From Porphyra umbilicalis (Eukaryota > Rhodophyta > Bangiophyceae > Bangiales > Bangiaceae), in assembly GCA_002049455.2 (NCBI GenBank), contig KV918783.1, positions 186,001 through 250,000 of the forward strand: a DNA stretch of 64,000 bases. Direction: 5' to 3'. Under the pieces are notes generated by a model. The model worked only from the letters and a program-made list of their open reading frames with translations. It ran no database searches and was not told where the DNA came from. Made by a program: the position numbers and the translations under genes. Shown in pieces: positions 10,155-57,618 of the stretch (within the stretch, counting starts at the first letter, position 1; each line of letters begins with the position of its first letter).

Positions 10155-11972
10155 ATGCGGAACCATGGCGTAGGTAACCGCGTCGGTTCCATCCGAGGCG
10201 CGACGACGGCGCCGCGCTTTGACCCGTTGACCATCATGGGCTGTTTCAACTGTGATGACCCAAAGCACGAGATCAAAAACTGCCCGAAGCCCAATGGGGA
10301 TGCCCGGCGGAACGCGAAAGCGTACGGTGACAAGATTGTTGCGCCGTCCCTTATGGCACTACGATATCGCGGCCACGCTTGGCCCATGCATGAGTGTGAT
10401 GCGGAGCTGCCGCCCTGTACTGAACACGGGCGCCGGGGTGAACATAGTGCGAGCTAGTGTTCTCCCGGCAAACTGGATGGCTTACGCCGAGAACTTGAAC
10501 ACGCTTCCGCGCATCAGAAATGCAAACAACAATCGTCTCGTGACGAAGTATGCCATACATCTATAAGTAGACACCGGAGGTGTACGTCTTTTTGTTCGAT
10601 TCCTCGTTTCCGACAACTTATCAGTCCAGAGCATCCTTGGTACCGAGTTCATTGAACGAAACATCAAGGCGATCTTGCCGCGTTTGCGAAAGATCGTCAG
10701 GCAGGAACTCGTGCGCTGCACGGAGAAAGTGCCTCGGCCAACGCCAATCTTGACTTGTCTTGATGACTGTGCCTGGGACCGCCATTGGCAAGACAAATCC
10801 GCAAGGGTGCGAGCCTGTAAACAGGTACATGTCAACGGACACCAAGAGGAGTGGATCATGGCCACATGTGACACTTCCGGTATGGTTACTATCACACCGA
10901 ACGCTCGGTTATGCCGACATAAGTCCATGTCGGTCGCCCGCGGCCTTGCCATCGTCAAGCCCGACGAGCTCTTCTTAGTCAGGTTATGTAACTTCGGCAA
11001 AGACCACGTCATTGTTCGAAAGAACTCAACCTTGCGGTTTGCAGAGCCCTACCAAGGGCCGATGTTGTCCGCCGTCCTGGATGACAACAACCCGAAGGAT
11101 GGAACCGATACTTCATCGGACGACGTGAGTCGTGACCCACTCGAGGACCTCGACCTCAGTGAGGCTCCCGAGTATCTGCACAAGCAGATTCGAGATATGC
11201 TCAAGACACATTCGTCTATGTGGGATGGAACCCTTGGCGTTATCCGTGCTACGGAGCACGCCATCGTCACTCCTCCAGACGCTCTGCCCATACGGGCTCA
11301 ACCCTACCGGACCGGGCCGTTCAAACGGCAGATCATCTCTGATCAGATCAACAAAATGTTGAAGCTCAATGTCATTGCCCCTAGCCATAGTGCTTGGGCA
11401 AGCCTCGTGGTAATTGTACCAAAGAAGAACGGCAAAGCCCGATTCTGTGTCGACTATCGTCGGTTAAACAACATCACAAAGAAGGATGCGTATCCCTTGC
11501 CTCGAATGGAGGACTGCCTTGACTCCTTGGGAGATGCCCAGGTGTTCACGTCTCTCGACTGCACCGCGGGGTACTGGCAAGTACCCTTACGCAAAGACGA
11601 CCAATAGAAGACGGCGTTCACAACGCCTTGTGGTTTACACCACTGGTTATCAATGCCTTTCGGCTTGACGAACGCGCCTGCTACCTTTCAGCGCGCGCTG
11701 GATATTATCCTCTCGGGTTTGAAGAGGCAGATATTCCTTGTCTACTTGGACGATGTCATCATCTTCTCTGCGAACGCGGAACAACACGTCAAAGACGTTG
11801 ACACGGGTTTGCACCGTCTCCGCGAAGCCGGGGCTACCCGGAACTTGCAAAAGTGCACATGGTTGTTCGACAAAGTCGAGTACCTCGGACACATTGTCCG
11901 CCCCGGGCAACTGCACGTGCATAACAAGAACGTTGATGCTCTGAAGTACGCCAAGCTCCCAACGACAAAGAC
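10155..11972 (+). pseudogene. pol: Element A pol, 5' half: zinc knuckle, protease, reverse transcriptase
   Basis: The order is nucleocapsid knuckle, aspartic protease, then RT. The protease motif reads NTGA instead of DTGA: the Asp codon is AAC at 10423-10425, which should abolish catalysis. Stops occur after KYAIHL (10564-10566) and after KDDQ (TAG at 11605-11607, where B and C have GAG). RT fingers (PKKNGKARFCVDYRRLNN), SLDCTAGYWQ, MPFGLTNAPATFQ and the catalytic YLDD (about 11743-11755) are readable. The half ends at PTTKT, where the CTAG target site of the inserted transposon falls at 11973-11976. Compared with B and C, the reading is old and non-functional. Confidence 0.8.
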
Positions 11973-11976
11973 CTAG

Positions 11977-14900
11977 TGTCTATTCTACCGGAAAAAAGGA
12001 TCAAATGAGCTGTGAGTGAGGATCAAATGAGCTTCTCCAGAATCGGCGATTTTGGCCCATCTGAGTGGGAAATCGGCCGATGAGACACCTACAAATGCAT
12101 GTTGGTGCTTTTCCCCGCCACCCCGTGAAGCGCAGAGACAATGCCCACGCCCCAAGATGACTATGATGTATTCGGGGAGCGTCGTACGGGAAGACCTGGT
12201 GCAAAAAGCGCCTCCACGGGCTCAGCAGTCTGAGTCAAGCATGTCCCCTCCGACTCTCCCCTCCTCCGTTTCATGCTGACAGGCACTGCCACCATGTCTC
12301 CTGGTACAGGAGCCTCTGAAAAGTGTCCTCATGGGCTCCCCTCCTTGAAAGACCGACACCAGGGCTGTGAAATCACCGTCTCCATGGTATGGCACTCGTC
12401 TCATCGTGTGATGCTTCCTCCCCCGACTCTCTCTTCCTCCAACGCTGTGAACAGTCTGATTTCGCTCTGCAGCGGTGGAAAGCGACTCTGCAGTCTTGTC
12501 AGGTTGCTGCAGAAGAGCCACAGTGACGACAGAGGTGGTGTAGCCTCGCTCAAAGGCTCTCCCAGAGGGACTGGGCGCGGGGAGAAACCTCGCCTTCGCC
12601 CGGAGCGGGCAACCCAGCAATCATCAGACCAAGAGCACAAGCCGTGGCTCCAGAGTCGACAAATTGACTTCGAGAAAAGAATTGTTCCATTTGTGAAAAA
12701 AAGAAGACATGACAACAAGTACAACAACCAAATTAAACTCTACTTACACATCGATTTCATGCACTTCCCGCAGGTGCACATGGAAGCAACCCCGCCCGGT
12801 CTTGGGGCCACAAAAGAACAGGTCCACGCCGGTGCCATCGCGGCAAGATGAGCACACAAGAGTGGTCCGACCGCTCTTGCAGACTCGGCAGTCGCGCTGC
12901 GCACGGTGGTCGCTGTCCCCCTTCCGACGCTTAAGAGTTGGGGTAAGGTGGACACCGACGCCGAAGCACACCACAGGCGCTCCATCGGAGCCAGCCACCG
13001 CGCCAGGCACCCCACGCTGTCGCAGACCAACAGAGTCGTAGGTGTTGTCGATCACCTGCGCTGCAAGGTCCTCGTAAAACTGGTTCTGGGTGAGCGCCGC
13101 CGCCGGACCGCGGGCGCCCGCGTACAACAGCCAGGCGTCCACGACACAAATGCCCAACAGGGAGAGGTTGACGCGCATGGACCAATCATGCGTGACAAGC
13201 TTGTGCTCCAGCCGCAAGTCGTCCTGCCGACAGCGGTTGTGGCGGTCGATTTGGGCGCAGCACTGGTAGTACGTCTCCACCACGAGCGGCTGTGGTACGG
13301 TCAGAACGACGCGCTCAGCGTGGTCGCCCACCTGACGCCACCGCACGCGGTCGCATGGCCTGCCAGGCAGGGTGCACGACGCCGTAGAAATGAAGTACCG
13401 CCGCTCCCGGTCGACCCACAGCACGGCGAGCATGTCCGCCACGCCGTCAGCCGTCTTGTGGGTGTACGAGATGTGTTCCCCCCGCTCCTCCAGCGGTAGC
13501 ACGGAGAGGGTACTCATCGGGTAGCCCCTGGTTGCCGTCTTCACGACCCCAATGAATCGGAGGCCCATGCCGAGCAGCTGCTCCGCCGCCGTGACGCTCG
13601 CGAAGTACGAGTCGGCACAGACCACCCGCTTAGTGCCGGCCCACGGGGCCACCAGCTTCTTCAACACAGTAGTACCATGCGGGAGGTCGTCCTCGTGGCC
13701 CGTCCCGGTGTCTTGGCGGTGCTCGGCGGTCGTCACGACGCTAAGGTTGAGCATAATTCCGCTGCGACCGCATGCAGCGTCTTGTATTTCACACCCGTTC
13801 TCGGGCTTGCGGTCAATTGCAACGTACATTGGAAGACCGCGAAGGATCCAATGACCTCCTTGACCGTACCATTTACACATGGATTCGTCGACGCAAATTA
13901 GGTCACTTGGTGACACGCGGGCTGCCCGGTGGGAGTTTATGGAAGATACAAACTCGTTGATGAGCTGCCACCTACTCCCCTCCGAGTCGTCCGCGTCGCC
14001 CGCCTGCTCGCTGAAGGTCACGGACGACCACAACGCGTCAAACCGGCTACGCGGCATGCCAGTCCGCTCACCGAAGGCGGGTGCCTGCATGTACTTGTTG
14101 CGCGCCTTGGTCGCCCACAGGTCCGCACGCGCGCCAAACTCGTAGCGAGTGGCCAGCAGGGTCACCCCAATGAACTTCAGCACCTCCCCGGCGGTTGTCT
14201 GCTGCATCCCGCGGGTGCGCAGCTTCGCGGAAGTCAACCTGACCATCCGCACGAGCTGGTCCACAGGGAACATCGCCATAAAATAGTCCAAGGGCTTGCG
14301 GGTCCGCCCAGGCCCGAGTGTGTCTCCATCCTCGTAGATGACCTCCCCCCCAGGCGTGCGGACCGACCAGGATTGGCGGGGCACGGGGCCCCCGACCGGT
14401 TCGTTGACCACCCCGGCCTCCCATGTGCGCCCGTGGGCTGTGGCCGTCGCCGGCACCCCCGCCAGAGGCGAGGGAGAGGGCACCCACCCGCTCGCAGGCG
14501 GGGGACTCGTGCCGGGCGTGGCCGCGGGCGGGACAAAGATGGGGGGGTGGGGGGGGGGGGGGGGGGGGGCACGTCTCGCCAGCGGGCTGGGACGCCTGCG
14601 TCACCGGCGACCCCTCCTCTGCGGCTGACACCTCCGGTAGGAGCTCGTGTGTGGGGGCTGGGCCAGCGTACACACTGGCCAACGCCTGCACCTTGTTGTA
14701 CACCTTGCCCCGCCACACGAACTTGACGCGCAGGTCCGTCCGGTTCCGACCCCCCTTGCCCTTTCCGCGCAGCACCTCCTGCACCGTGCCGTTGAGCAGC
14801 CACGTCTTGGCCAGCGCGCCGCGGAAGCGGCTCAGCTCGACGAGGCTTGTCACGTTGACTGCCTTGGTGTGCACCGCCGCGCCGACGACCAGTCGCGGGT

Positions 14901-15700
14901 TGCCGATCTTCCTCTTGTTCTTTGGCACCGAGGGAGGCGGGGGGGGGGGGGGGGGGGTTGGGGAGGGCGGCGGTGGCGGGGGAGGCCGCTGCGGTGGCGG
15001 ATGCAGGGGCGGCGGCGACGGCCGCCACCGGAACGGGGGCAGTGGCAGCAGGGGGAGGTGGGGAAGAAGGGGGGCCGGCGACAGCCTTGGCAGTGGTCTT
15101 GCGCCTCCCCATCGTGCGTGCCGGCCGGGGCGAAGAACAGAACGGGAGGGGGAGGCGGAAAACAGAACAGGAGAGGGAAGCGGTGAACAGAACAAGGGGG
15201 GGGGGGGGGGGGGGGGGGGCAATAGCAGCACGGAGGGCCGCGCGACGAGTGCGCGGCTGAGGATGCAGTGGGTGGGTGACGGCGGGTTGGGAGGAGGGGC
15301 GCCGCGGGGCGTCGCCCCCTCGCGGATATAACACGCTCCGCCCGACCAGCCAGCACCGGGGGGTGGTGCCCACGCGTGCCCGCGTCTTGGGCGGACGAAA
15401 CGGAGCCAGTTTCCCGCGCGCGGGGCGAGGAGGGTAGGAACGGCACGGGCAGAGAATGCTGTTTGGAGGTCCCTGTCAGTGGCGGGAACCGCCCCAGGGC
15501 GCGAAAAAAAAGGCGCCCCAGGGTGACTTCTTCGCTTGGCAGGATGCACCGCGGCTCCCCCAGGGGAAAAGAGACTGCGCTGAGCTCATTTCTGCAATCA
15601 GAATGTACCGCAAACGTCTGGAAGCACTCGAAAACAGACACCCAAAATGAGGATCAAATGAGCGGAAAAGTATCAAATGAGTCCCCCGGTAGAATAGACA
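11977..15700 (-). mobile_element. PiggyBac-like DNA transposon with CTAG target duplication
   Basis: The 3,724-bp insert begins TGTCTATTCTACCGG and ends CCGGTAGAATAGACA, a perfect 15-bp inverted repeat. CTAG lies immediately outside each end (11973-11976 and 15701-15704). Removing the insert and one CTAG rejoins the pol frame of element A (PTTKT to LKSFLGMC), as in B and C, so the borders are exact. Subterminal copies of GATCAAATGAG lie at about 11999 and 12020 on the left, and GATCAAATGAG and TATCAAATGAG near 15653 and 15671 on the right, all in the same orientation. The only recognisable gene is the minus-strand transposase. About 700 bp at the left end is non-coding. Canonical piggyBac uses TTAA; CTAG is also a palindromic tetranucleotide. 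Confidence 0.9.
12744..15112 (-). pseudogene. PiggyBac-like transposase (DDE_Tnp_1_7 type), frame broken at C homopolymers
   Basis: The 579-codon frame at 14483-12744 holds the whole catalytic core: LICVDESMCKWYG (first Asp), VVCADSYFAS (second Asp) and QIDRHNRCRQDD (third Asp). A C-terminal cysteine-rich module follows (CRVC...CSSC...FFCGP...CFHVHLREVH), as in PiggyBac transposases. The N-terminus continues upstream in other frames: GNPRLVVGAAVHTKAVNV to TWLLNGTVQEVLRGKGKGG in one, and MGRRKTTAKAVAG from an ATG at 15112 in another. The switches coincide with long G runs on the plus strand at about 14548-14567 and 14938-14957. They are therefore homopolymer slippage in the genome or in the read, or small introns. 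The intact product would be near 790 residues with a low-complexity Pro/Ala N-terminus. The catalytic core itself has no stop. Confidence 0.85.
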
Positions 15701-15704
15701 CTAG

Positions 15705-17394
15705 CTGAAAAGCTTCTTGGGCATGTGCAACGTCTATCGACGTTTTGTCAAGGACTTTGCCAAACGAGCGAAGCCCCTGAACGCCCTGACTAGGGCCGAG
15801 ATCCTACCGAATCTACCACCGCCGACGGACGTTGCCATCGTCGCCATCAAAGACCTTCGCAACGCACTCTTGTGTTCACCGGTACTTGTCTTTCCAAAGG
15901 CCAACCGGAAGCTCGTCGTCGACGTTGACGCATGTGCCGACCAAGTCGGTTGTACCCTCCTCCAGGAGAAACCGGGCGAACTGCTTCATCCTGTCGGATA
16001 TTGGAGCCGAGGACGCACTGCAGCCACTGCTGCATAAAAAAACTACTCCACCACGGAGCGCGAATACAACGGAGCGCGAATGCGTCGGCGTCGTGTGGGC
16101 TGTCATCAAGTTGAGGCACTTCCTCGACGGGCAACGGTTCCTCATCCGAACAGATCACCAAGCACTTGGCTGGATCTACAGCACGACCGACTCAAGAGGA
16201 CGCTTGATGCGCTGGCGACTTCGCCATTCCGAATACACATTCGATATGGTTTATAAACCAGGTGCATCGCACCACTTGCCCGACTTCCTGTCGCGCACCT
16301 CTACGGTGACGCCGCCAGAAGATATCTATGATGATATACCTTGCCTGGCATTGGCCGAGACGGCCAGCGGCTTGAGGACGGGGAGGTACACGGGTATCGA
16401 CACACCCGAACCGATGGAATTCGACGACGTTGTTGAAGAACAATAAACAGACGACTACTGTGTCGAGATGTCCACTCGCGTGGAATGCGGAACGGCCAAG
16501 GCCTTCGTCCGCAGCGAGCATCACGCTCTGTGTCGCCGGACGCCTCACGGCAACCCATTGGTCAGACCAAAATCACTACGCGAAGGCGTCTTGACGCTCG
16601 AGCACCACGCCACGGTGGCAGCCCATCCTGGTATGAACCGGATGTATTACACCATGCCGAAGGCATATTACTGGCCTTCGATGGTAACGGACATCCATAC
16701 CACCATCACGAAGTGCACAACTTGTGCTCAAGCCTTCCTCGCCTTGCGGCGACACACCACGCCCTTAACGCTGTTCCCGGCTACTGAGCCTCTCACGGAA
16801 CTGTCCGTTGACATCTTTGGGCCCATCCCGGCCTCCAAGAAGGGCAAACGCTTCATCTTGGTTATCACCGACCGCTTCGCCAAGCTCACCAAGTGTGTCG
16901 CCTTACGACGACTTACAGCCATGTCCGTGGCGTCAGCCATCATCGACGCGTGGGTGTCCGCCTACAGGCTACCGGACCTATCGGACCAAGGGCCCCAGTT
17001 CATGTCGAACTTCTTCATCGCTGTGATGAAGATGCTTGGCATTGAAACGGTTCGTACCACGGCGTATCAACCCCAAACCAATGGGCAAGTCGATCGGTAC
17101 AACCGTACTATGGCTACTCAGCTGCGACACTACGTTGCTGATGACCCATCACGATGGGACGAGCTACTCCCGGTTATCACCATGGCATATAATAGCCAAC
17201 CGCTCCGGTCTACGGGTATCGCTCCATTTGAGATCGGTATCCCAAGGCGGATCGCTAACCTCACGGTTCGCAACTTGCCCCCTGGCACTCCGCTGGCCAA
17301 TAAGGGAACGCTCAAGGATGGGTCACCCCTAGCTCGCAAACGCGAGTTCATGGCCTGCCTTCGCAGGCAGATCCCCGTCGTAGTATAAGCCTTG
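15705..17394 (+). pseudogene. pol: Element A pol, 3' half: RNase H and integrase
   Basis: It continues the RT thumb (LKSFLGMCNVYRRFVKDFA), then RNase H (DVDACADQVGCTLLQ, FLIRTDHQALGWI), the integrase HHCC finger (HHATVAAHPGM...CTTCAQ) and the core (SVDIFGPIPASKKGKRF, LSDQGPQFMSNFF). Lesions include a frameshift near 16020-16060, a TAA at 16444-16446 where B has CAA, loss of six bases before the second catalytic Asp, and replacement of the DDE glutamate by Asp (GAT at 17092-17094, in GQVDRYNRT). A TAA ends the frame at 17386-17388. Homology to B and C runs on to GACGCAACAA and stops at the start of element B. Confidence 0.85.
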
Positions 17395-18034: not shown

Positions 18035-19681
18035 ATGTCTACTAGTGGTACCGGCGGCACTCGGCGAGCCAGAGACGGCAAGTTGCCATCTGGCTACCGG
18101 CCGCCGGGCGGGGGACAAGGCACTCCTGCCGCCTCCGACGCCCCCACGGACGGTGCTCCAACTCCTCCCATCCCTGCGGATCAAGCCGCCTCTGGGCAGA
18201 TGCAGGTGGTGGAGAGCCTGGAGGCGGCCGTTGAAGCACTTCAGCGACGCCTAACGGCCCAAGAACAGGCTAACGAGTCTCTGGCGCGAGCCAATGACAA
18301 GTTGGTCGACGACGTCGAGGCCCTGCGCAAGGTCGACTCCCATGAGGAGGAACGCCGTGTGGCTAAGTCTCGCCGCCAGTCGGGCGACAAGACCAAGGAC
18401 GTCAAGAAGACGAACAAGGTGATCAAGGACAAGTCCGTCCGCAAGGACGCTCCGGCTAACGCCGCGCTTTCCTCATCTTCCGACGATTCCGCGTCTGGGT
18501 CAAGCCCGACGTCGTCAGACGACGACAACCCCAACGCGACGGACACGTCCTCTTCGGACGATGGCCACGGGCCCCCACACCCGCCGTCGCCCCCAAGTGG
18601 GTCCTCGCCGAGCGAAAGCTCGAGCGAGTCGGACGCGGCCGCGCGCAAGCGCCCCACGCCCCCCACCAAACGGAAGGAGCGACTTGAAAAAGCCGATAGG
18701 ATCAAGGTGATCCGCCCGGCTAATAGCCGCTTCAAGACACTCCTGGACTACAGGACGTACTTCCTGATCCGCCGTCAACTGACGTATACGCCTAAAGAGG
18801 CACGGCGGTCGCACCGTCTCAACAAACGTTTGGACGTAGCGTTCCATGGGCAACAGCCATTCACGGGAGCCCTGCCCTTGGGCATCTTCACGTTCTTGAC
18901 GACCTTTCGCCGCGCGTGCGACGCGGCTGGGCTGACGCACGGTCAAGCCCTTCCGCTTATGGTCTTTCGACTAGCCGGCAACGCCAAGATGGCCTTCTCC
19001 GGCGCGCTTAACAGCACCCTCGGACGTAAGCGTTACGCCATCCGTACCTACGGAGATGCCGTCAACTGGCTTCTTTCGAAGTATGCGACACACGCAACCA
19101 TGGCTAACGCCTATCAAGACATCATTACGATGAAGCAACAAGACAACGAGGCGCCCACGGCCTTTGGTCATCGCGTGGAAACGCAATGCGACCTCCTCAA
19201 CGGTTTGTTCGACATCCAAGACGTTAAGGACGTCTTCATCACTGGTCTTTCGGACCTTGTGCAAGCGCACGTACGGGTACTGAACGACCAGTTCCCCGAC
19301 CGAACCCTGTCCGAGACGGTCGCCACCGCCCAGATGTACTGGGACGGCACCAACAAGTTGCGTTTGCAACTCAAGATTACCCGCCCAACGGCGATCAAAG
19401 TCGCTTACGCAACACAAGACCAGCGGACGACGACGGAACGACCATTCACACCGGTTCGCACCTCGCCGCCCCCTCGGGCCGCCGTCCCCCAAGCCAATCG
19501 GGCTGACATCTGTTACAACTGCAACAAGCCGGGGCACCTCGCCGCACAGTGTGCCGAGCCTTATCGCCCTCGCGAGCGTCGGCAACCGCCTATCGGCGTT
19601 CATGCTCTTGCCGACGGTAACGTCGAGGAAGACGAGGTCGAGCATCCGGCTGACGCCGTGGACGACTCGAAAAACGTCTAG
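18035..19681 (+). CDS. gag: Gag of chromovirus B
   Basis: 548 residues, the structural polyprotein that would form the virus-like particle and package element RNA. Residues about 1-55 are Gly/Pro-rich. About 56-115 form a charged coiled coil (VEALQRRLTAQEQANESLAR onward), followed by a Lys-rich then Ser/Asp-rich linker to about 205. Residues 265-470 are the helical capsid-like region (LTTFRRACDAAGLTHGQALP, GRKRYAIRTYGDAVNWLLSK). The CX2CX4HX4C knuckle uses Cys493, Cys496, His501 and Cys506 (CYNCNKPGHLAAQC). The ATG at 18035 is the first after the leader, and the length equals that of C. Pol begins in the -1 frame at the 3' end, so Gag-Pol fusion by frameshifting is likely. Confidence 0.9.
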   Translation: MSTSGTGGTRRARDGKLPSGYRPPGGGQGTPAASDAPTDGAPTPPIPADQAASGQMQVVESLEAAVEALQRRLTAQEQANESLARANDKLVDDVEALRKVDSHEEERRVAKSRRQSGDKTKDVKKTNKVIKDKSVRKDAPANAALSSSSDDSASGSSPTSSDDDNPNATDTSSSDDGHGPPHPPSPPSGSSPSESSSESDAAARKRPTPPTKRKERLEKADRIKVIRPANSRFKTLLDYRTYFLIRRQLTYTPKEARRSHRLNKRLDVAFHGQQPFTGALPLGIFTFLTTFRRACDAAGLTHGQALPLMVFRLAGNAKMAFSGALNSTLGRKRYAIRTYGDAVNWLLSKYATHATMANAYQDIITMKQQDNEAPTAFGHRVETQCDLLNGLFDIQDVKDVFITGLSDLVQAHVRVLNDQFPDRTLSETVATAQMYWDGTNKLRLQLKITRPTAIKVAYATQDQRTTTERPFTPVRTSPPPRAAVPQANRADICYNCNKPGHLAAQCAEPYRPRERRQPPIGVHALADGNVEEDEVEHPADAVDDSKNV

Positions 19682-19710
19682 GCCGGGTGCCCGACTTGGG
19701 GTTGCCCGGC
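19669..19710 (+). promoter_or_regulatory. Candidate -1 ribosomal frameshift signal, element B
   Basis: GAAAAAC (19669-19675, read G AAA AAC in the gag frame) lies two codons before the gag TAG. After a 6-nt spacer comes GCCGGG (19682-19687), complementary to CCCGGC (19705-19710), making a 6-bp GC stem with a 17-nt loop. Slipping -1 here enters the pol frame exactly. The heptamer departs from the X XXY YYZ rule at its first base. The signal is identical in C. Confidence 0.55.
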
Positions 19711-22700
19711 AGAACGCGAAAGCGTACGGTGACAAGACTCTTACGTCGTGCCCTTCGGCACTATGAGATCGCAGCCACGTTAGGCCCATGCCTGCGCGTA
19801 ATGCGAAGTTGCCGCCCTGTCTTAGACACGGGCGCCGGGGTGAACATAGTGCGAACTAGTGTTGTCCCTTCGAACTGGATGGCTTACGCCGAAGAGTTGA
19901 CTACGCTTCCGCGCATCCGAGATGCAAACAACAATCGTCTTGTGACGAAGTATGCCATACATCTGTATGTAGACACCGGAGGTGTGCGTCTATTTGACCG
20001 ATTCCCCGTTGCCGACAACTTCTCAGTCCCGTGCATTCTTGGCACCGAGTTCATTGAACAAAACATCGAGGGCATTCTGCCGCGCTTGCGCAAGATCGTC
20101 TGGCAAGAGCACGTGCGATGCACGGAAGAGCAACCTCGGCCAACGCCGATCTTAGCTTGTCTTAACGACAGCGCGTGGGACCGCCACTGGCAAGATAAAC
20201 CCGCTCGGGTTCGAGCCTGCAAACAGGTGCGTGTCAACAAACACAAGGAGGGGTGGATCATGGCCACGTGCGACACGCCTGGTATGGTTACCATCACACC
20301 GAACATTCGGTTGTGCAGACACAAGTCCATGGCAGTCGCCCGCGGCATCGCCATCGTCAAACCGGACGAACCGTTCCTGGTCAAGTTATGCAACTTCGGC
20401 AAGGACCAAGTCATTGTTCGCAAGAACTCTACCTTGGGGTTTGCAGAACCCTACCAAGGGCCGATGCTTTCCGCCGTCTTGGATGACAACACCCCAAAGG
20501 GTGGAACCGATAACTCATCGGACGACGCGAGTCGTGACCCACTCGAGGACCTCGACCTCAGTGAGGCACCCGAGTACCTGCACAAGCAGATTCGAGACAT
20601 GCTGAAGACGCATTCGTCTATGTGGGATGGAACCCTTGGCGTCATCCGTGCTACGGAGCACGCCATCGTCACTCCTCCCGACGCTCTGCCCATACGGGCC
20701 CAACCCTACCGGACCGGGCCGTTCAAACGGCAGATCATCGCTGATCAGATCAACAAGATGTTGAAGCTCAACGTCATTGCCCCTAGCCATAGTGCTTGGG
20801 CAAGCCTCGTGGTAATTGTACCAAAGAAGAACGGCAAAGCCCGATTCTGTGTCGACTATCGTCGGTTAAACAACATCACCAAGAAGGATGCTTATCCCTT
20901 GCCTCGGATGGAGGACTGCCTCGACTCCTTGGGAGATGCCCAGGTGTTCACGTCTCTCGACTGCACCGCGGGGTACTGGCAAGTACCCTTACGCAATGAC
21001 GACCAAGAGAAGACGGCGTTCACGACGCACTGTGGTATATACCACTGGTTATCCATGCCGTCCGGCTTGACAAACGCGCCCGCTACCTTCCAGCGCGCAT
21101 TGGATATTATCCTCTCGGGTTTGAAATGGCAGATATGCCTTGTCTACTTAGACGATGTCATCATCTTCTCCGCAAACGCGGAACAACACGTCAAAGACGT
21201 TGACACGGGTTTGCACCGTCTCCGCGAAGCCGGGGTCACCCTCAATTTGGAAAAGTGCACGTGGTTCTCCCATGAGGTCGAGTACCTAGGACACATTGTC
21301 CGCCCCGGGCAACTGCACGTGCGCAACAAGAATGTGGATGCTATGAAGCATGCCAAGTTCCCAACCACAAAGACCCAGCTAAAAAGCTTCTTGGGCATGT
21401 GCAACGTCTATCGACGGTTTGTCAAAGACTTTGCCAAACGAGCAAAGCCCCTGAACGCCCTGACTAGGGCCGAGATGTTACCGGATTTACCACCACCGAC
21501 GGACGTGGCTATCGCCGCCTTCGAGGACCTTCGCAACGCACTGTTGTGCCCACCGGTACTTGCCTTGCCGAAGGCCAATCGGAAACTCGTCGTTGACGTG
21601 GACGCATGCGCCGACCAAGTGGGTTGTACCCTCCTCCAAGAGGAGCCGGGCGAACTGCTTCACCCTGTCGGGTATTGGAGCCGAGGACTCACTGCTGCAG
21701 AGCAAAACTACTCCACCACGGAGCGAGAATATCTCGGCGTTGTGTGGGCTGTCCTCAAGTTGAGGCACTTCCTCGACGGACAACGGTTCCTCATCCGAAC
21801 GGATCACCAAGCACTTAGCTGGATCTACAGCACCACCGACTCAAGCGGACGCTTGATGCGATGGCGACTTCGCCTCTCCGAATACACATTCGATATGGTT
21901 TATAAACCAGGTGCATCGCACCACTTGCCCGACTTCCTATCGCGCGCCTCTACGGTGGCTCCGCCAGAGGATATCCATGATGATATACCTTGTCTGGCAT
22001 TGGCCGAGACGGCCAACGGCTTAAGAACGGGAAGGTACACGGGTACCGACACACCGGAACCGGTGGAGTTCGACGATGTTGTCGAAGCACAACAAACAGA
22101 CGACTTTTGCGTCGAGATGTCCACTCGCGTGGAGCGCGGAACGGCCAAGGCCTTCTTTCGCGATGAGCACCACGCTCTGTACCGCCGTGCGCCATACGGC
22201 AATCAACTGGTTATTCCAAAGTCGCTACGCGAACGCGTGTTGACCCTCGAGCACCACGCAACCGTGGCCGCCCATCCTGGTATGTCCCGGATGTACTACA
22301 CAATGCGTAAGGCATACTACTGGCCTTCAATGGTGACGGATATTCATTCGACCATCACCAAATGCACAACGTGTGCGCAAAACCGCCTCGCCTTGCGGCG
22401 ACACACCACGCCCTTGACCCTGCTCCAGGCTACCGAGCCTCTCACGGAGCTATCCGTTGACATCTTTGGGCCCATCCCGGCCTCCAAGAAGGGCAAACGC
22501 TTCATCTTGGTTATCACCGACCGCTTCGCCAAGCTCACCGAGTGCGTCGCCTTGAGGCGAATCACGGCCATGTCAGTGGCGTCAGCCATCATCGACGCGT
22601 GGGTGTCAGCCTACGGGCCACCGGACCGGATCCTATCGGACCAAGGGCCCCAGTTCATGTCGAACTTCTTCATCGCTGTGATGAAAATGCTTGGCATTGA

Positions 22701-23814
22701 AACGGTTCGCACCACGGCGTATCATCCCCAAACCAATGGGCAAGTTGAACGGTACAACCGGACCATGGCTACGCAGCTGCGACACTACGTCGCCGAAGAC
22801 CCATCACGATGGGATGAGCTACTCCCGGTAATCACCATGGCGTATAATAGCCAACCACATCGGTCGACGGGCATCGCCCCATTTGAGCTTGTTATCCCAA
22901 GGCGGATCCCCAACCTCACGGTTCGCAACTTGCCCCCGGGCACTCCGCTTACCAATAAGGGAACGCTCAAGGATCGGTCACCCCTAGCTCGCAAGCGCGA
23001 GTTCATGGCCCGCCTGCGCAAGCAGATCCCCATCGTGGTCGAGGCCTTGCGTAAGACGCCACAACGTTACAAACGTAACCTTGACCACCGGGTCGCAACC
23101 CGCAATGCGGACGTCAAGATCGGCGACTACGTATACACGACCAACCACGATCGGCAAAACAAGCTGCAAAGCAAAGCCATTGGCCCCTTCGTGGTCGTCG
23201 ACGCGGACGCGGACGCCTCCACGTTTGTCATTGACATTGACGGCGAGGAGAAACGCGTCAGCAGTGACCATGTCACCCCAGCTCCTCGTCCAACGACGAC
23301 GGACAAGGTTCCACACCCCTTGCTAGATGGTCTAGACCAACGCAAGTCAACCCCGGCAACTGCCGATGAGTATGTGATCGACAAACTCCTAGGCTTACGC
23401 CAGACGGGTGACAGCTATAGCGCTAAGGTGCGCTGGTTCGACTACGGGTCGAAAGACGACACCTGGGAACCCCTGGAGAACCTCCCCCGCAACCTGGTGG
23501 TGCGTTTCCTTCGACAGAAGAAGAAGCATGTACCGGGGTACGAGTGGCAAACGCCAACGCGACGAAGTCGCCAACAGGCCGGGCTCACAACCGTGGCCAA
23601 CATCGTCATGGACTCCACGTGGATACCCACTATCCAACATGTCCATGTTACCGGTGACGGAGTTATCCATGCCGACGTCTCGTGGACAGAGTCAAGTACA
23701 GACGTTGCAATTAAGGAAGTAATTCCTGTTGCGTGGCTCAAGTCCACTCTGCCGTCCATGACGCGCAAGTTTGCGCATGATCCCCAACTTGCCTTGCGGC
23801 ATTTCCTCGGCTGA
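19675..23814 (+). CDS. pol: Pol of chromovirus B (C-terminus lost by a 1-nt deletion)
   Basis: Counting from the ATG at 19687: protease DTGA at Asp47; RT with PKKNGKARFCVDYRRLNN near 380, SLDCTAGYWQVPL and YLDD (Tyr487, Asp489, Asp490); RNase H near 636-740 (DVDACAD, TDHQALSW); integrase HHCC finger, then the D,D35E core at Asp925, Asp985 and Glu1021; chromodomain about 1228-1281 (EYVIDKLLGL...VRWFDYGSKDDTWEPLENLP), which in this family steers integration to modified chromatin. Two lesions stand out relative to C: TCC at 21061-21063 turns MPFGL into MPSGL (Phe459Ser), and ATTTCCTCGG at 23801-23810 lacks one base, ending the frame at HFLG and removing about 75 residues. The upstream boundary is set by the inferred frameshift, as there is no good independent start. 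Confidence 0.9.
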   Translation, partial: RLGRVPDLGLPGRTRKRTVTRLLRRALRHYEIAATLGPCLRVMRSCRPVLDTGAGVNIVRTSVVPSNWMAYAEELTTLPRIRDANNNRLVTKYAIHLYVDTGGVRLFDRFPVADNFSVPCILGTEFIEQNIEGILPRLRKIVWQEHVRCTEEQPRPTPILACLNDSAWDRHWQDKPARVRACKQVRVNKHKEGWIMATCDTPGMVTITPNIRLCRHKSMAVARGIAIVKPDEPFLVKLCNFGKDQVIVRKNSTLGFAEPYQGPMLSAVLDDNTPKGGTDNSSDDASRDPLEDLDLSEAPEYLHKQIRDMLKTHSSMWDGTLGVIRATEHAIVTPPDALPIRAQPYRTGPFKRQIIADQINKMLKLNVIAPSHSAWASLVVIVPKKNGKARFCVDYRRLNNITKKDAYPLPRMEDCLDSLGDAQVFTSLDCTAGYWQVPLRNDDQEKTAFTTHCGIYHWLSMPSGLTNAPATFQRALDIILSGLKWQICLVYLDDVIIFSANAEQHVKDVDTGLHRLREAGVTLNLEKCTWFSHEVEYLGHIVRPGQLHVRNKNVDAMKHAKFPTTKTQLKSFLGMCNVYRRFVKDFAKRAKPLNALTRAEMLPDLPPPTDVAIAAFEDLRNALLCPPVLALPKANRKLVVDVDACADQVGCTLLQEEPGELLHPVGYWSRGLTAAEQNYSTTEREYLGVVWAVLKLRHFLDGQRFLIRTDHQALSWIYSTTDSSGRLMRWRLRLSEYTFDMVYKPGASHHLPDFLSRASTVAPPEDIHDDIPCLALAETANGLRTGRYTGTDTPEPVEFDDVVEAQQTDDFCVEMSTRVERGTAKAFFRDEHHALYRRAPYGNQLVIPKSLRERVLTLEHHATVAAHPGMSRMYYTMRKAYYWPSMVTDIHSTITKCTTCAQNRLALRRHTTPLTLLQATEPLTELSVDIFGPIPASKKGKRFILVITDRFAKLTECVALRRITAMSVASAIIDAWVSAYGPPDRILSDQGPQFMSNFFIAVMKMLGIETVRTTAYHPQTNGQVERYNRTMATQLRHYVAEDPSRWDELLPVITMAYNSQPHRSTGIAPFELVIPRRIPNLTVRNLPPGTPLTNKGTLKDRSPLARKREFMARLRKQIPIVVEALRKTPQRYKRNLDHRVATRNADVKIGDYVYTTNHDRQNKLQSKAIGPFVVVDADADASTFVIDIDGEEKRVSSDHVTPAPRPTTTDKVPHPLLDGLDQRKSTPATADEYVIDKLLGLRQTGDSYSAKVRWFDYGSKDDTWEPLENLPRNLVVRFLRQKKKHVPGYEWQTPTRRSRQQAGLTTVANIVMDSTWIPTIQHVHVTGDGVIHADVSWTESSTDVAIKEVIPVAWLKSTLPSMTRKFAHDPQLALRHFLG

Positions 23815-29805: not shown

Positions 29806-31640
29806 ACGGTCACCACCGCCGCCGCCACCCCCAGTGCAACCGACGCCGCCGCCATCAGCGTTGTTGATGAAAAGGCCGCCCTTTAGGTCGAAGAGGAGGA
29901 GAGTATCTGGGCCGTCGGCAAGGTACTTCACGTCACCAGTAACTGCTTGATGTCGACGGTTCTGCTGCAGCTGGTCTTGACTACCCCCTTGGGGCAGGGC
30001 ACTGAAGCGGGAAGCCAGCTTCAGAAACAGCCGCACAATGTTGTCAAAGGCGGCGTACCACCCAGGTCGGGTGCAAAGGCCGGAGACACCACGCGACGGG
30101 TCCAAGCTGTGGCCCAGCAGCAGCAAATCAGCACTGTAGTAGCGGGTGAAGCGCCATTGCAGCAGCTTGAGGATGGTCATGCAAAGCTAGTTGGTGACTG
30201 CCCTCATGGACGTGTCAGCCGACACGACAAACACAGGTGCCAGCGCTGTTGCCCCGTCTGGACCCAACGTGGCACTGTACACCCTCACTTGAGAGTAGAT
30301 GGCGTGGAGGCGGCGAAAGGCTGCAGCGGCGTCCGCCAGGCTGCTGTCACGGCACTCTACTAAGCCGATCTCCTTCACAATTGGTAGGAGCAGTTGCGTG
30401 ACCACCTCCAATCGGCCCCAGAACGACCGGCTGCGCAACTCATTCACGACAACGGCGCCATTGGTGATGCGCAGCAGGGTTGTGCCGGCGTCGTAGTCAT
30501 TGGCAAACCGCTCCAGGCCTAGCTTGATGTCGGGAAGCCGCTGCGCCTGCACGCAGTGAGAGTACCAGCGTGTCTCTCCCGTATTGATGAAGGTGAGCCG
30601 CTTCTTCATGGTCGCATCCAGAATCTCCAGCAAAAGACCCATGTACTTGGTGGAGCGCTTGAAGAAGGACACGATCAGCGAGCACTTGCTCGTGGTAGCG
30701 CGCAGCGACTCGTGTCCAATGACGCTTCCCGTCAGGAGGTGGAGCTGATGCGCTAAGCACGCTACGAAGATTATAGAACGGTGCAGCAGCGAAATCGCTC
30801 TATTGGCGCCGACATTGGTACTTGCCGAGTAGCTGACCACACCCACCACGGCAGAGGTGGTGTCCGTCGACAGCCCCGCCGACGCCAGCGGCAACGTCCA
30901 GTTACCGGTCTCCACCCCCTTGGCCATCTCAGACTCCAGCTTGTGCTGCACCAGGGTTGCCGACTCGGATACCGTCGTGATGTCTGTAGTCCCGCGGAAG
31001 TTTGCCGCCACGCGTCCGTCTTCTGAGCCGACGTTGCTGCACAGGATGCCCGTGAGCTTGCGGCCTGCCCGGCTGTTCCACCCGTCGATAGAATTGGTGA
31101 TGTAGCAGCCTTTGAGGTAGATGACCTTGGAAGCGGCCACACAGTCCGCCACGAGACGATCCAGCACTGGACCCGAGATAGTTTGTTGTGTGGGCAGTGT
31201 CTTGAGACCAGACACGCTTTTGAGGAGGAAGCACCGCAGCACCGGCGAGTCGATAAAGCTAAAAGCCACAGCAGCGAAGAGTTGCACCCACAGAAGGTCA
31301 GTTTGGAACTCCCTCGTCCTGAAAGGAGAAAAGGGCCGCGGCAGGTGGGCGTCCATGGGCCCCAGGCAGTTGGTATGGCCCCCTCCGCCGCCTTCCGATG
31401 CGTCCCGTGCACGGTGCTTACGGGTCCCCGCGTCGCCTTGCACCGCCTTCACCTTGACCTCCCTGGGGGCTTGCGCACACCTATTGGCGAGATGGGTGAC
31501 CATGGCGTCCAGGCGCCCGTTGATCGGCACCTTGACGCTCTTGGTCTTGCAGAAGATGCAAAATACCTCCGTGGATGTCCTGGTGTAGTCCTTTGACCGA
31601 CGTCGAAGTAGACCCAGAGATGACTAATCTTCTCCCTCTT
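29806..31640 (-). pseudogene. hAT-type transposase with BED zinc finger and DUF659-like core
   Basis: The main frame (31530-30187) encodes TISGPVLDRLVADCVAASKV, GCYITNSIDGWNSRAGRKLT, FVACLAHQLHLL and NTGETRWYSHCVQAQRL, the RNase H-fold pattern of hAT/DUF659 proteins (DGW, CxxH, TRWYS). Just upstream is a BED finger: HLWVYFDV, then in another frame TEVFCIFCKTK and AMVTHLANRC, so there is a frameshift near 31597. Downstream, after an in-frame TAG at 30187-30189, the frame continues with TILKLLQWRFTRYYSADLLL, the expected hAT C-terminal region, and fades into Gly repeats where LTR remnant D begins at 29805. Dead, and truncated at its 3' end. I see no convincing terminal inverted repeats or 8-bp duplication. 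Confidence 0.75.
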
Positions 31641-49573: not shown

Positions 49574-49577
49574 CTAG

Positions 49578-49863
49578 TGTCCATTCTACTGATCCCGAGG
49601 CTCAAACGAGCCTCAGATGAGGCTCAAATGAGGCTCCCTCTCATATGGCCTGGAAACGCGGCCTTTTTGGGGTGTCTGGGGCACCCCCTCCGAGTTTTCA
49701 TCGTACACAGCCGCCGAGTTGGTCCATAGGTAAGTGGGCTGCGCTGAGTCCAGATCTATTCTCAGAAAGAGCAGCCGAGGCCGGAACCTGGTCACAGAGA
49801 GGCATCAAAGATAGGCTCAAACGAGCCTGAGAGGCTCAAATGAGGCGGTCAGTAGAATGGACA
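49578..49863. mobile_element. 286-bp MITE of the PiggyBac-like CTAG family
   Basis: Ends TGTCCATTCTACTGA and TCAGTAGAATGGACA, a perfect 15-bp inverted repeat matching the 11977-15700 element's ends at 12 of 15 positions. CTAG flanks both sides (49574-49577, 49864-49867). Subterminal GCTCAAATGAGG and GCTCAAACGAGCCT units parallel the GATCAAATGAG units of the larger element. No coding capacity. Mobilisation in trans by that element's transposase is inferred from the shared termini and target. Confidence 0.88.
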
Positions 49864-49867
49864 CTAG

Positions 49868-55942: not shown

Positions 55943-57589
55943 ATGTCTACTGGTGGTACCGGCGGCACTCGGCGAGCCAGAGACGGCAAGTTGCCATCTG
56001 GCTACCGGCCGCCGGGCGGGGGTCAAGGCACTCCTGCCGCCTCCGACGCCCCCACGGACGGTGCTCCAACTCCTCCCATCCCTGCGGATCAAGCCACCTC
56101 TGGGCAGATGCAGGTGGTGGAGAGCCTGAAGGCGGCCGGTGAAGCACTTCAGCGACGCCTAACGGCCCAAGAACAGACTAACGAGTCTCTGGCGCGAGCC
56201 AATGACAAGTTGGTCGACGACGTCGAGGCCCTGCGCAAGGTCGACTCCCATGAGGAGGAACGCCGTGTGGCTAAGTCTCGCCGCCAGTCGGGCGACAAGA
56301 CCAAGGACGTCAAGAAGACGAACAAGGTGATCAAGGACAAGTCCGTCCGCAAGGACACTCCGGCTAACGCCGCGCTTTCCTCATCTTTCGACGATTCCGC
56401 GTCTGGGTCAAGCCCGACGTCGTCAGACGACGACAACCCCAACGCGACGGACACGTCCTCTTCGGACGATGGCCACGGGCCCCCACACCCGCCGTCGCCC
56501 CCAAGTGGGTCCTCGCCGAGCGAAAGCTCGAGCGAGTCGGACGCGGCCGCGCGCAAGCGCCCCACGCCCCCCACCAAACGGAAGGAGCGACTTGAAAAAG
56601 CCGATAGGATCAAGGTGATCCGCCCGGCTAATAGCCGCTTCAAGACACTCCTGGACTACAGGACGTACTTCCTGATCCGCCGTCAACTGACGTCTACGCC
56701 TAAAGAGGCACAGCGGTCGCACCGTCTCAACAAACGTTTGGACGGAGCGTTCCATGGGCAACAGCCATTCACGGGAGCCCTGCCCTTGGGCATCTTCACG
56801 TTCTTGACGACCTTTCGCCGCGCGTGTGACGCGGCTGGGCTGACTCACGGTCAAGCCCTTCCGCTTATGGTCTTTCGACTAGCCGGCAACGCCAAGATGG
56901 CCTTCTCCGGCGCGCTTAACAGCACCCTCGGACGTAAGCGTTACGCCATCCGTACCTACGGAGATGCCGTCAACTGGCTTCTTTCGAAGTATGCGACACA
57001 CGCAACCATGGCTAACGCCTATCAAGACATCATTACGATGAAGCAACAAGACAACGAGGCGCCCACGGCCTTTGGTCATCGCGTGGAAACGCAATGCGAC
57101 CTCCTGAACGGTTTGTTCGACATCCAAGACGTTAAGGACGTCTTCATCACTGGTCTTTCGGACCTTGTGCAAGCGCACGTCCGGGTACTGAACGACACGT
57201 TCCCCGACCGAACCCTGTCCGAGACGGTCGCCACCGCCCAAATGTACTGGGACGGCACCAACAAGTTGCGTTTGCAACTCAAGATTACCCGCCCAACGGC
57301 GATCAAAGTCGCTCACGCGACACAAGACCAGCGGACGACGACGGAACGACCGTTCACACCGGTTCGCACCCCGCCGCCCCCTCGGGCCGCCGTCCCTCAA
57401 GCCAATCGGGCTGACATCTGTTACAACTGTAACAAGCCGGGGCACTTCTCCGCACAGTGTGCCGAGCCTTATCGCCCTCGCGAGCGTCGGCAACCGCCTA
57501 TCGGCGTTCATGCCCTTGCCGACGGTATCGTCGAGGAAGACGAGGTCGAGCATCCGGCCGACGCCGTGGACGACTCGAAAAACGTCTAG
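55943..57589 (+). CDS. gag: Gag of chromovirus C
   Basis: 548 residues, collinear with Gag of B from the same leader position and differing at only a small number of residues (for example GEALQRRL for VEALQRRL, and SSFDD for SSSDD). It has the same coiled-coil, Ser/Asp linker, capsid-like region and CX2CX4HX4C knuckle (CYNCNKPGHFSAQC near residue 493). The low number of changes and lack of lesions suggest recent common origin and retained function. The TAG at 57587-57589 follows the slippery sequence. Confidence 0.92.
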   Translation: MSTGGTGGTRRARDGKLPSGYRPPGGGQGTPAASDAPTDGAPTPPIPADQATSGQMQVVESLKAAGEALQRRLTAQEQTNESLARANDKLVDDVEALRKVDSHEEERRVAKSRRQSGDKTKDVKKTNKVIKDKSVRKDTPANAALSSSFDDSASGSSPTSSDDDNPNATDTSSSDDGHGPPHPPSPPSGSSPSESSSESDAAARKRPTPPTKRKERLEKADRIKVIRPANSRFKTLLDYRTYFLIRRQLTSTPKEAQRSHRLNKRLDGAFHGQQPFTGALPLGIFTFLTTFRRACDAAGLTHGQALPLMVFRLAGNAKMAFSGALNSTLGRKRYAIRTYGDAVNWLLSKYATHATMANAYQDIITMKQQDNEAPTAFGHRVETQCDLLNGLFDIQDVKDVFITGLSDLVQAHVRVLNDTFPDRTLSETVATAQMYWDGTNKLRLQLKITRPTAIKVAHATQDQRTTTERPFTPVRTPPPPRAAVPQANRADICYNCNKPGHFSAQCAEPYRPRERRQPPIGVHALADGIVEEDEVEHPADAVDDSKNV

Positions 57590-57618
57590 GCCGGGTGCCC
57601 GACTTGGGGTTGCCCGGC
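57577..57618 (+). promoter_or_regulatory. Candidate -1 ribosomal frameshift signal, element C
   Basis: GAAAAAC (57577-57583), 6-nt spacer GTCTAG containing the gag stop, then GCCGGG (57590-57595) complementary to CCCGGC (57613-57618). It is identical in B. A -1 slip reads through as EKRLGRVPDLGLP into protease. The pol frame also stays open upstream, overlapping gag by more than 120 nt. Confidence 0.58.

What the first reader, a model, noticed from the sequence alone, without database searches (positions are those of the whole stretch)
11977..15700. PiggyBac-like transposon that duplicates CTAG rather than TTAA
The 15-bp inverted ends are perfect, CTAG flanks both, and the uninterrupted homologous pol in two other copies shows the empty site, so target and borders are unambiguous. 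The transposase core has the PiggyBac-type acids and a Cys/His C-terminal module. Canonical piggyBac inserts at TTAA; use of another palindromic tetranucleotide would mark a distinct target-specificity group.
Basis: partly seen in the sequence, partly recalled or inferred. Interest (0 to 1): 0.75.

Follow-up and report, generated by a model that had tools for sequence, protein, structure and literature searches.

The report
PiggyBac-type transposon that targets CTAG
This is a jumping gene related to the widely used piggyBac transposon, but it and its relatives in the same genome sit at the DNA word CTAG instead of piggyBac's TTAA, and the part of the enzyme that should grip the target DNA differs in step.

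Summary
The element (11977-15700) has perfect 15-bp inverted ends, CTAG on both sides, and a transposase with the piggyBac domain, catalytic aspartates, predicted fold and Cys-rich tail. Genome-wide, the exact 13-bp end TGTCTATTCTACC occurs 389 times: 310 (80%) follow CTAG, none follows TTAA. Around 24 transposase copies examined, 35 of 40 ends found follow CTAG. A 49%-identical relative on a viral-collection contig, grouping with a diatom protein, shows CTAG|TGTCTAT at its one recognisable end.

One correction: the window's two uninterrupted pol copies read CCAG at the site, and 0 of 100 listed genomic copies read CTAG, so the element sits in a variant copy.

The clade lies apart from sampled piggyBac and piggyBat groups (quick tree, support 100). 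Its omega loop, which holds the target in piggyBac, is 7 residues longer, and six of nine TTAA-contact residues checked differ clearly, while the catalytic triad is kept.

Not proven: whether four or only the inner two bases are duplicated (CTAG is a palindrome). Excision was not tested. No CTAG-targeting piggyBac turned up in the open-licence papers searched. New variant of a known kind.

The parts
11973..11976 (.). left copy of the target tetranucleotide CTAG
11977..11991 (+). left terminal inverted repeat TGTCTATTCTACCGG (15 bp)
   Evidence: its 13-bp core occurs 389 times in the genome
11998..12032 (+). two subterminal copies of GGATCAAATGAGC (11998, 12020), candidate transposase-binding motif (role inferred)
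12747..14600 (-). transposase open frame, 618 codons without a stop, DDE_Tnp_1_7 at residues 103-490
12765..12905 (-). Cys/His-rich C-terminal part (C571, C574, C583, C586 ...)
13245..13247 (-). codon of third catalytic aspartate D452 (aligned with piggyBac D447)
13611..13613 (-). codon of second catalytic aspartate D330 (aligned with piggyBac D346)
13794..13889 (-). omega loop from first catalytic aspartate D238 (piggyBac D268) to G269; 32 residues against 25 in the sampled piggyBac and piggyBat rows
14845..14895 (-). landmark of the conserved N-terminal segment (RLVVGAAVHTKAVNVTS), in a different frame from the transposase core; G-runs lie at 14549-14569, 14939-14957 and 15196-15219
   Evidence: similar N-terminus in P0002
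15651..15682 (+). subterminal copies near the right end: GGATCAAATGAGC (15651) and GTATCAAATGAGT (15670)
15686..15700 (-). right terminal inverted repeat
15701..15704 (.). right copy of CTAG
10567..17388 (+). host: degenerate Ty3-type retroelement pol interrupted by the element (frames listed at 10567-11607, 15790-16446, 16447-17388); homologous uninterrupted frames at 19654-23814 and 57433-62046
49574..49867 (.). 286-bp non-autonomous relative in the same window (TGTCCATTCTACTG ends) with CTAG on both sides

Best explanation
The element is a transposase-bearing DNA transposon of the piggyBac superfamily whose lineage inserts at CTAG instead of TTAA. Shown: the ends, the CTAG flanks across the genome, and a piggyBac-type DDD transposase with an altered loop where piggyBac holds its target. 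Inferred: as in piggyBac, the transposase nicks the transposon 3' ends, forms hairpins over the flanking tetranucleotide, and joins the ends across a melted 4-nt target, so CTAG ends up on both sides and can be restored on excision. CTAG keeps the TA core of TTAA and swaps the outer T/A for C/G, which is again complementary, so the contact between first and last target base that piggyBac relies on could be kept. The longer omega loop and its substituted contacts would be what accepts C/G in place of T/A. Numerous short elements with the same ends (about 280-300, 1,045-1,060 and 1,410 bp, pairs inferred from spacing) are presumably moved by the same enzymes.
For: Census of the exact 13-bp end in the whole genome: CTAG 310, first base not C 45, CTAH 5, CTBN 12, CVNN 17; total 389; about 0.4 CTAG expected from its frequency in the DNA held; TTAA before the end: 0 exact. 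Around 24 transposase copies 40 ends were found (up to 2 mismatches and a subterminal motif required), 35 after CTAG; 16 copies two-ended, 14 of them CTAG/CTAG. Three more PF13843 places lie between listed CTAG ends (C2, C11, C15). A scan for 9 or more bases of inverted end behind 12 palindromic tetranucleotides gave CTAG 15, TTAA 0 (loci over 4 kb of this genome without the window; L001-L008 overlap other loci or the window, so the 15 holds repeats). Two insertions into one pol family sit at CTAG where paralogues read CCAG and CGAG. Transposase identity. Omega loop 32 residues in the 42 clade rows that cover it (17 own, 24 homologues, L097), 25 in 40 of 40 reference rows; R275, Y283, K290, V414, L416, N440 replaced; D268, D346, D447 kept; their roles from PMC7351741 (section 12 and passages read). 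Second lineage: L097 left end CTAG|TGTCTATCC, grouping with Fragilaria crotonensis P0116, support 100.
Against: CTAG is a palindrome, so duplication of the outer C and G is not shown. The only non-palindromic duplications seen, CTGG/CTGG in 2 copies (L076; L089 with L090, paired by their 1.4-kb distance), fit a 4-bp and an inner 2-bp duplication alike. 79 of 389 ends are not CTAG; first-base changes (45) far exceed last-base changes (13, of which 6 are CACT), which a plain 4-bp duplication with decay does not predict. Of 24 TTAG ends, 19 are explained by a neighbouring TA-inserting family or scar-like sequence under rules I wrote after seeing the data; 5 are not. The omega loop is the low-confidence part of the model (residues 242-270 under pLDDT 50), so the Y283 and K290 equivalences depend on the alignment. 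Not all contacts changed: Y439 and R376 are mostly kept and R372 is K. Only T. ni piggyBac and piggyBat are known TTAA users among the reference sequences; the habit of the sampled rows was not checked. The L097 evidence is one end only. Copies duplicated with their flanks were not removed from the census. The tree is of the quick kind, with warnings on long branches and letter make-up.
Confidence: 0.85

Rival explanations
1. The true duplication is only TA, the element begins with G and ends with C (GTGTC...GACAC), and CTAG is a preferred context around a TA target. The transposase is piggyBac-like but cuts with a different stagger.
For: The base next to the end is G in 376 of 389 ends while the outer base is C in only 344. 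Of 17 copies with an XTAG-type end and a resolved other end, 14 have CTAG there, 3 something else, and none the complement expected from a 4-bp duplication (counted by eye). A Tc1/mariner-type family in the same genome appears to insert at C-TA-G with TA duplicated.
Against: 19 of 24 TTAG ends adjoin that other family or scar-like sequence. In piggyBac the position of the active sites mandates a 4-bp offset (PMC7351741, Discussion passage seen). Outer C/G would have to be a strict preference without duplication.
Confidence: 0.15
2. An ordinary TTAA piggyBac whose flanks look like CTAG by chance, decay or wrong border.
For: A published animal survey lists a few non-TTAA types and relates them to mutation (PMC10813416, passages seen).
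Against: 310 CTAG against 0 TTAA at the same end in one genome; several transposase lineages agree; borders fixed by uninterrupted paralogues.
Confidence: 0.01
3. The ends belong to another transposon superfamily and the piggyBac-type gene is a passenger.
For: A second family with a similar GTCTATTC motif (CTA|AAGGTCTATTCC) has a copy with pieces of a Tc1/mariner-type transposase.
Against: 16 of 24 examined transposase copies have ends of this type on both sides, 2.7-4.2 kb apart; the other 8 have one such end, 5 of these after CTAG (the ends were sought within 3.5 kb around the gene, so a gene between ends is partly built in). The distant relative L097 has the same end about 285 bp before its piggyBac-type frame.
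Confidence: 0.02

Closest known systems
piggyBac of Trichoplusia ni (PDB 6x67/6x68)
   Different: CTAG instead of TTAA; ends TGTCTATTC rather than the CACTA/CCC-type starts listed for animal families in PMC10813416; omega loop 7 residues longer; several TTAA-contact residues replaced; a conserved N-terminal segment without Pfam match; 16% identity over the fold alignment
piggyBat of Myotis lucifugus (PDB 9c0f)
   Different: TTAA target (PMC11707139, passages seen); short omega loop (25 residues)
[quoted passage not shown]
   Same: piggyBac-type elements with a flanking tetranucleotide other than TTAA
   Different: a few types that the authors relate to mutation, none CTAG in the passages seen (its supplementary table was not seen); here several lineages share CTAG
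PiggyMac of Paramecium (PMC8086355, passages seen)
   Same: domesticated piggyBac relative that cleaves at TA dinucleotides rather than TTAA
   Different: eliminates internal sequences flanked by TA; not a mobile element at CTAG

Membership tests
piggyBac superfamily | DDE_Tnp_1_7 catalytic domain | tested here: met
   141.6 bits against cut-off 22.4
piggyBac superfamily | three catalytic aspartates in register with D268, D346, D447 | tested here: met
   D238, D330, D452 in the window copy; D in nearly all rows of the alignment, with single exceptions in own and reference rows
piggyBac superfamily | transposase fold | tested here: met
piggyBac superfamily | C-terminal Cys-rich zinc domain | tested here: met
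   invariant C571 and C574, nearly invariant C583 and C586 in 25 sequences, aligned with piggyBat's tail; by sequence only, zinc binding not tested
piggyBac, TTAA-specific group | TTAA target and duplication | tested here: not met
   TTAA before the exact end 0, CTAG 310 of 389; so it is filed as a non-TTAA clade of the superfamily, not as canonical piggyBac
piggyBac, TTAA-specific group | short omega loop with R275/Y283/K290 | tested here: not met
   32 against 25 residues; R275 to Y, Y283 to A or S, K290 mostly to N; alignment-dependent for the last two
piggyBac superfamily | 4-bp target-site duplication | tested here: inconclusive
   palindromic site; CTGG/CTGG in 2 copies fits 4 or 2 bp
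piggyBac superfamily | seamless excision through a hairpin intermediate | not testable with these tools
   needs cells or purified protein
Tc1/mariner | Tc1/mariner-type (DDE_3) transposase | tested here: not met
   the element's own transposase matches DDE_Tnp_1_7 and, below cut-off, DDE_Tnp_1; no DDE_3 match at E up to 1
Tc1/mariner | TA duplication | tested here: inconclusive
   a TA-only duplication inside CTAG is not excluded

The most novel reading that the evidence does not exclude
A large clade of algal piggyBac transposases has switched target from TTAA to CTAG by a coupled change: the outer T/A of the target became C/G, still complementary, and the omega loop that holds the melted target was enlarged and its contacts rebuilt, while hairpin chemistry and seamless 4-nt excision were retained. 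If so, piggyBac target choice is evolvable and set by a short loop.
Probability: 0.5. Interest if true: 0.85.

Novelty: new variant of a known kind. Interest (0 to 1): 0.72.

Why it matters
TTAA is treated as the hallmark of piggyBac, and the structural work explains it by a required contact between first and last base of the melted target. A natural clade with CTAG tests that model directly: it predicts that C/G can replace T/A if the loop changes too. It could also give a second integration specificity for genome engineering, and a test case for how transposons shift target choice. For annotation, such piggyBac families and their short derivatives may be missed by tools that demand TTAA.

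Tried and rejected
TTAA-flanked ends in the same genome: none exact, none in the inverted-end scan. That scan also gave GATC 10, TGCA 2, AGCT 1, TCGA 1: the GATC pairs I take for the subterminal motif inside the element, the others for unrelated repeats or the second family; they were not studied one by one.

I first read the excess of first-base changes as a sign that the duplication is only TA. The flanks showed that many TTAG ends adjoin a second, TA-inserting family or scar-like sequence, so I dropped that as the main reading but keep it as a rival.

A second PF13843 search at E up to 10 only added weak fragments.

The viral-collection pattern search gave 5 stretches. One is the contig of L097 again; the other four show one match to the CTAG-plus-end pattern and no second end after CTAG and were treated as chance. 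Their coding content was not examined. The right end of L097 was not found.

Literature: searches with piggyBac and CTAG listed 4, 2 and 8 papers; of these I saw passages of PMC3073922 and PMC6651600, where CTAG is a primer site or part of table sequences; the rest only as listings. Searches gave no CTAG target for piggyBac in titles or abstract starts. Subscription papers and Repbase reports were not searched, so absence from print is not shown.

Full report
What is there. The window is part of an unnamed 83.8-Mb genome in 665 contigs; G+C is 0.52-0.78 by 2-kb block. At 11977-15700 lies a 3724-bp element with perfect 15-bp inverted ends TGTCTATTCTACCGG, flanked on both sides by CTAG. It interrupts a degenerate Ty3-type pol. 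Two uninterrupted pol frames in the window align straight through the site, which fixes the borders. The site there reads CCAG. A degenerate pattern for this pol stretch matches 253 places in the genome (up to 2 mismatches); the 100 listed, all exact matches, include no CTAG. So the element sits in a copy that differs at the site. A second transposase copy, L012, sits elsewhere in the same pol family with CTAG on both sides, where the three window paralogues read CGAG. Two insertions into single-base CTAG variants fit a strict preference.

The genome-wide test. PF13843 gives 61 matches at E up to 0.001, some of them pieces of one copy. I fetched 23 further copies and looked for ends around all 24, the window's included, allowing 2 mismatches and asking for a subterminal motif: 40 ends found, 35 preceded by CTAG, the others by GTAG, CTAA, CTCG, CTAC and CACT once each; 16 copies are two-ended, 14 of them CTAG/CTAG. 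Independently of the transposase, the exact 13-bp end TGTCTATTCTACC was counted by the four bases before it: CTAG 310, first base not C 45, CTAH 5, CTBN 12, CVNN 17, together 389. About 0.4 CTAG would be expected from its frequency in the DNA held. TTAA occurs before the end 0 times exactly; all 27 one-mismatch hits read TTAG, CTAA or ATAA before the end. A scan for 9 or more bases of inverted end behind any of 12 palindromic tetranucleotides gave CTAG 15 and TTAA 0 (loci over 4 kb of this genome, without the window; L001-L008 overlap other loci or the window copy, so the 15 holds repeats).

The exceptions. I hold the flanks of 75 of the 79 non-CTAG ends. Variation is lopsided: 45 first-base changes against 13 last-base changes, 6 of the latter CACT. 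Of 24 TTAG ends, 10 adjoin what looks like an end of another family (one, L036, could be a changed end of this family), 9 a short scar-like C-TA-n-TA-G, and 5 neither (the rules were mine and made after looking). That other family (CTA|AAGGTCTATTCCACGC; 72+81 matches with up to 1 mismatch, A-first flanks not counted as exact, control 0+2) has a 4.5-kb copy, L096, with a DDE_3 match at E 2.8e-5, below the curated cut-off; I call it Tc1/mariner-type on that and on recalled motifs. It seems to insert at the TA of CTAG and thereby replaces the outer base seen from our element. Two copies show CTGG on both sides (L076; L089 with L090, paired by distance). Of 17 copies with an XTAG-type end and a resolved other end, 14 have CTAG there and none the complement (counted by eye). 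Hence the target is CTAG, but a 4-bp duplication is inferred from piggyBac chemistry, not shown.

Relatives and clade. I took 24 of the 120 by hand, and from each of the two reference lists of 120 (piggyBat, piggyBac) the top hit and 19 at random after a length filter. In a tree of 82 rows (quick method, SH-aLRT), the 42 clade rows (17 own, 24 homologues, L097) are split from the reference rows with support 100 on a branch of 2.74; the piggyBac and piggyBat groups have 99 and 98. The tool warned of long branches (bat_P0208) and of unlike letter make-up in 39 rows. One own row, L018, was left out as short; six other examined copies were not in the tree. Own copies fall in several lineages. L097, a contig of the viral collection, groups with the Fragilaria protein (100) and has CTAG|TGTCTATCCTCCCG about 285 bp before its listed frame. 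This is one end of one copy, but it lies across a supported split from the window's lineage.

How it may work. In T. ni piggyBac the target TTAA is held melted by the omega loop; A3 is hydrogen-bonded to T0 and stacked on Y283, and in the hairpin complex N440 contacts a base and V414/L416/Y439 form a pocket for a thymine methyl (PMC7351741, section 12 read in full, other passages by search). In this clade the loop from the first aspartate to the conserved G is 32 residues in the 42 rows that cover it, against 25 in 40 of 40 reference rows, with the motif WYGxGGxWxxxGLPxY common to most. R275 is Y, Y283 is A or S, K290 is mostly N, V414 is R in all but one row, L416 mostly F, N440 is Y in all but one row, D450 is N; R372 is K in nearly all; Y439 and mostly R376 are kept. 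The loop is poorly modelled, so the Y283 and K290 equivalences are only as good as the alignment, and the TTAA habit of most reference rows was not checked. CTAG keeps the TA core and replaces the outer T/A by C/G, which is again complementary. I infer that the same melted-target mechanism is used with a rebuilt loop. This is a prediction, not a result.

Novelty. [quoted passage not shown] None of the searches showed a CTAG target for piggyBac in what I saw of them. The library lacks most subscription papers and Repbase, so a report may exist. I rate it a new variant of a known kind.

Noticed in passing
L096 (G000:C4:139750-144400); L047:781-1445; L020:7065-8118: A second family, apparently Tc1/mariner-type, with ends CTA|AAGGTCTATTCCACGC (or AAGTCTATCCC), seems to insert at the TA of CTAG, often beside piggyBac-type ends; scars of the form C-TA-n-TA-G suggest it excises with footprints. 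Its ends share GTCTATTC with the piggyBac-type ends, unexplained.
   Followed up: partly
genome-wide; examples L029-L095, window 49578-49863: Sets of short non-autonomous elements with the same ends (about 280-300, 1,045-1,060 and 1,410 bp by spacing), and chains of elements sharing single CTAG junctions (L014, L018, L047).
   Followed up: partly
L038, L041, L065: CTAGTAG before the end in three GTAG cases, possibly imprecise excision scars of this or the other family.
   Followed up: no
L084, L087, L094: Two ends of this type abut with only CT between them (CACT flank), as if two bases of CTAG were lost.
   Followed up: no
window 14549-14569, 14939-14957, 15196-15219: Runs of 21, 19 and 24 G in the transposase region, near a change of frame; pseudogene or assembly length error.
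   Followed up: no
P0002 N-terminal part; window 14845-14895(-): A conserved N-terminal segment in the clade that no Pfam model matched in four homologues.
   Followed up: no
window 20542-23811(+): Ty3-type pol with reverse transcriptase, RNase H, integrase and chromodomain matches; 253 places in the genome match one pol stretch of this kind.
   Followed up: partly
window 30190-31623(-): Frame with a weak DUF659 match (E 0.0011, below cut-off), possibly a hAT-type transposase (that link is recalled).
   Followed up: no
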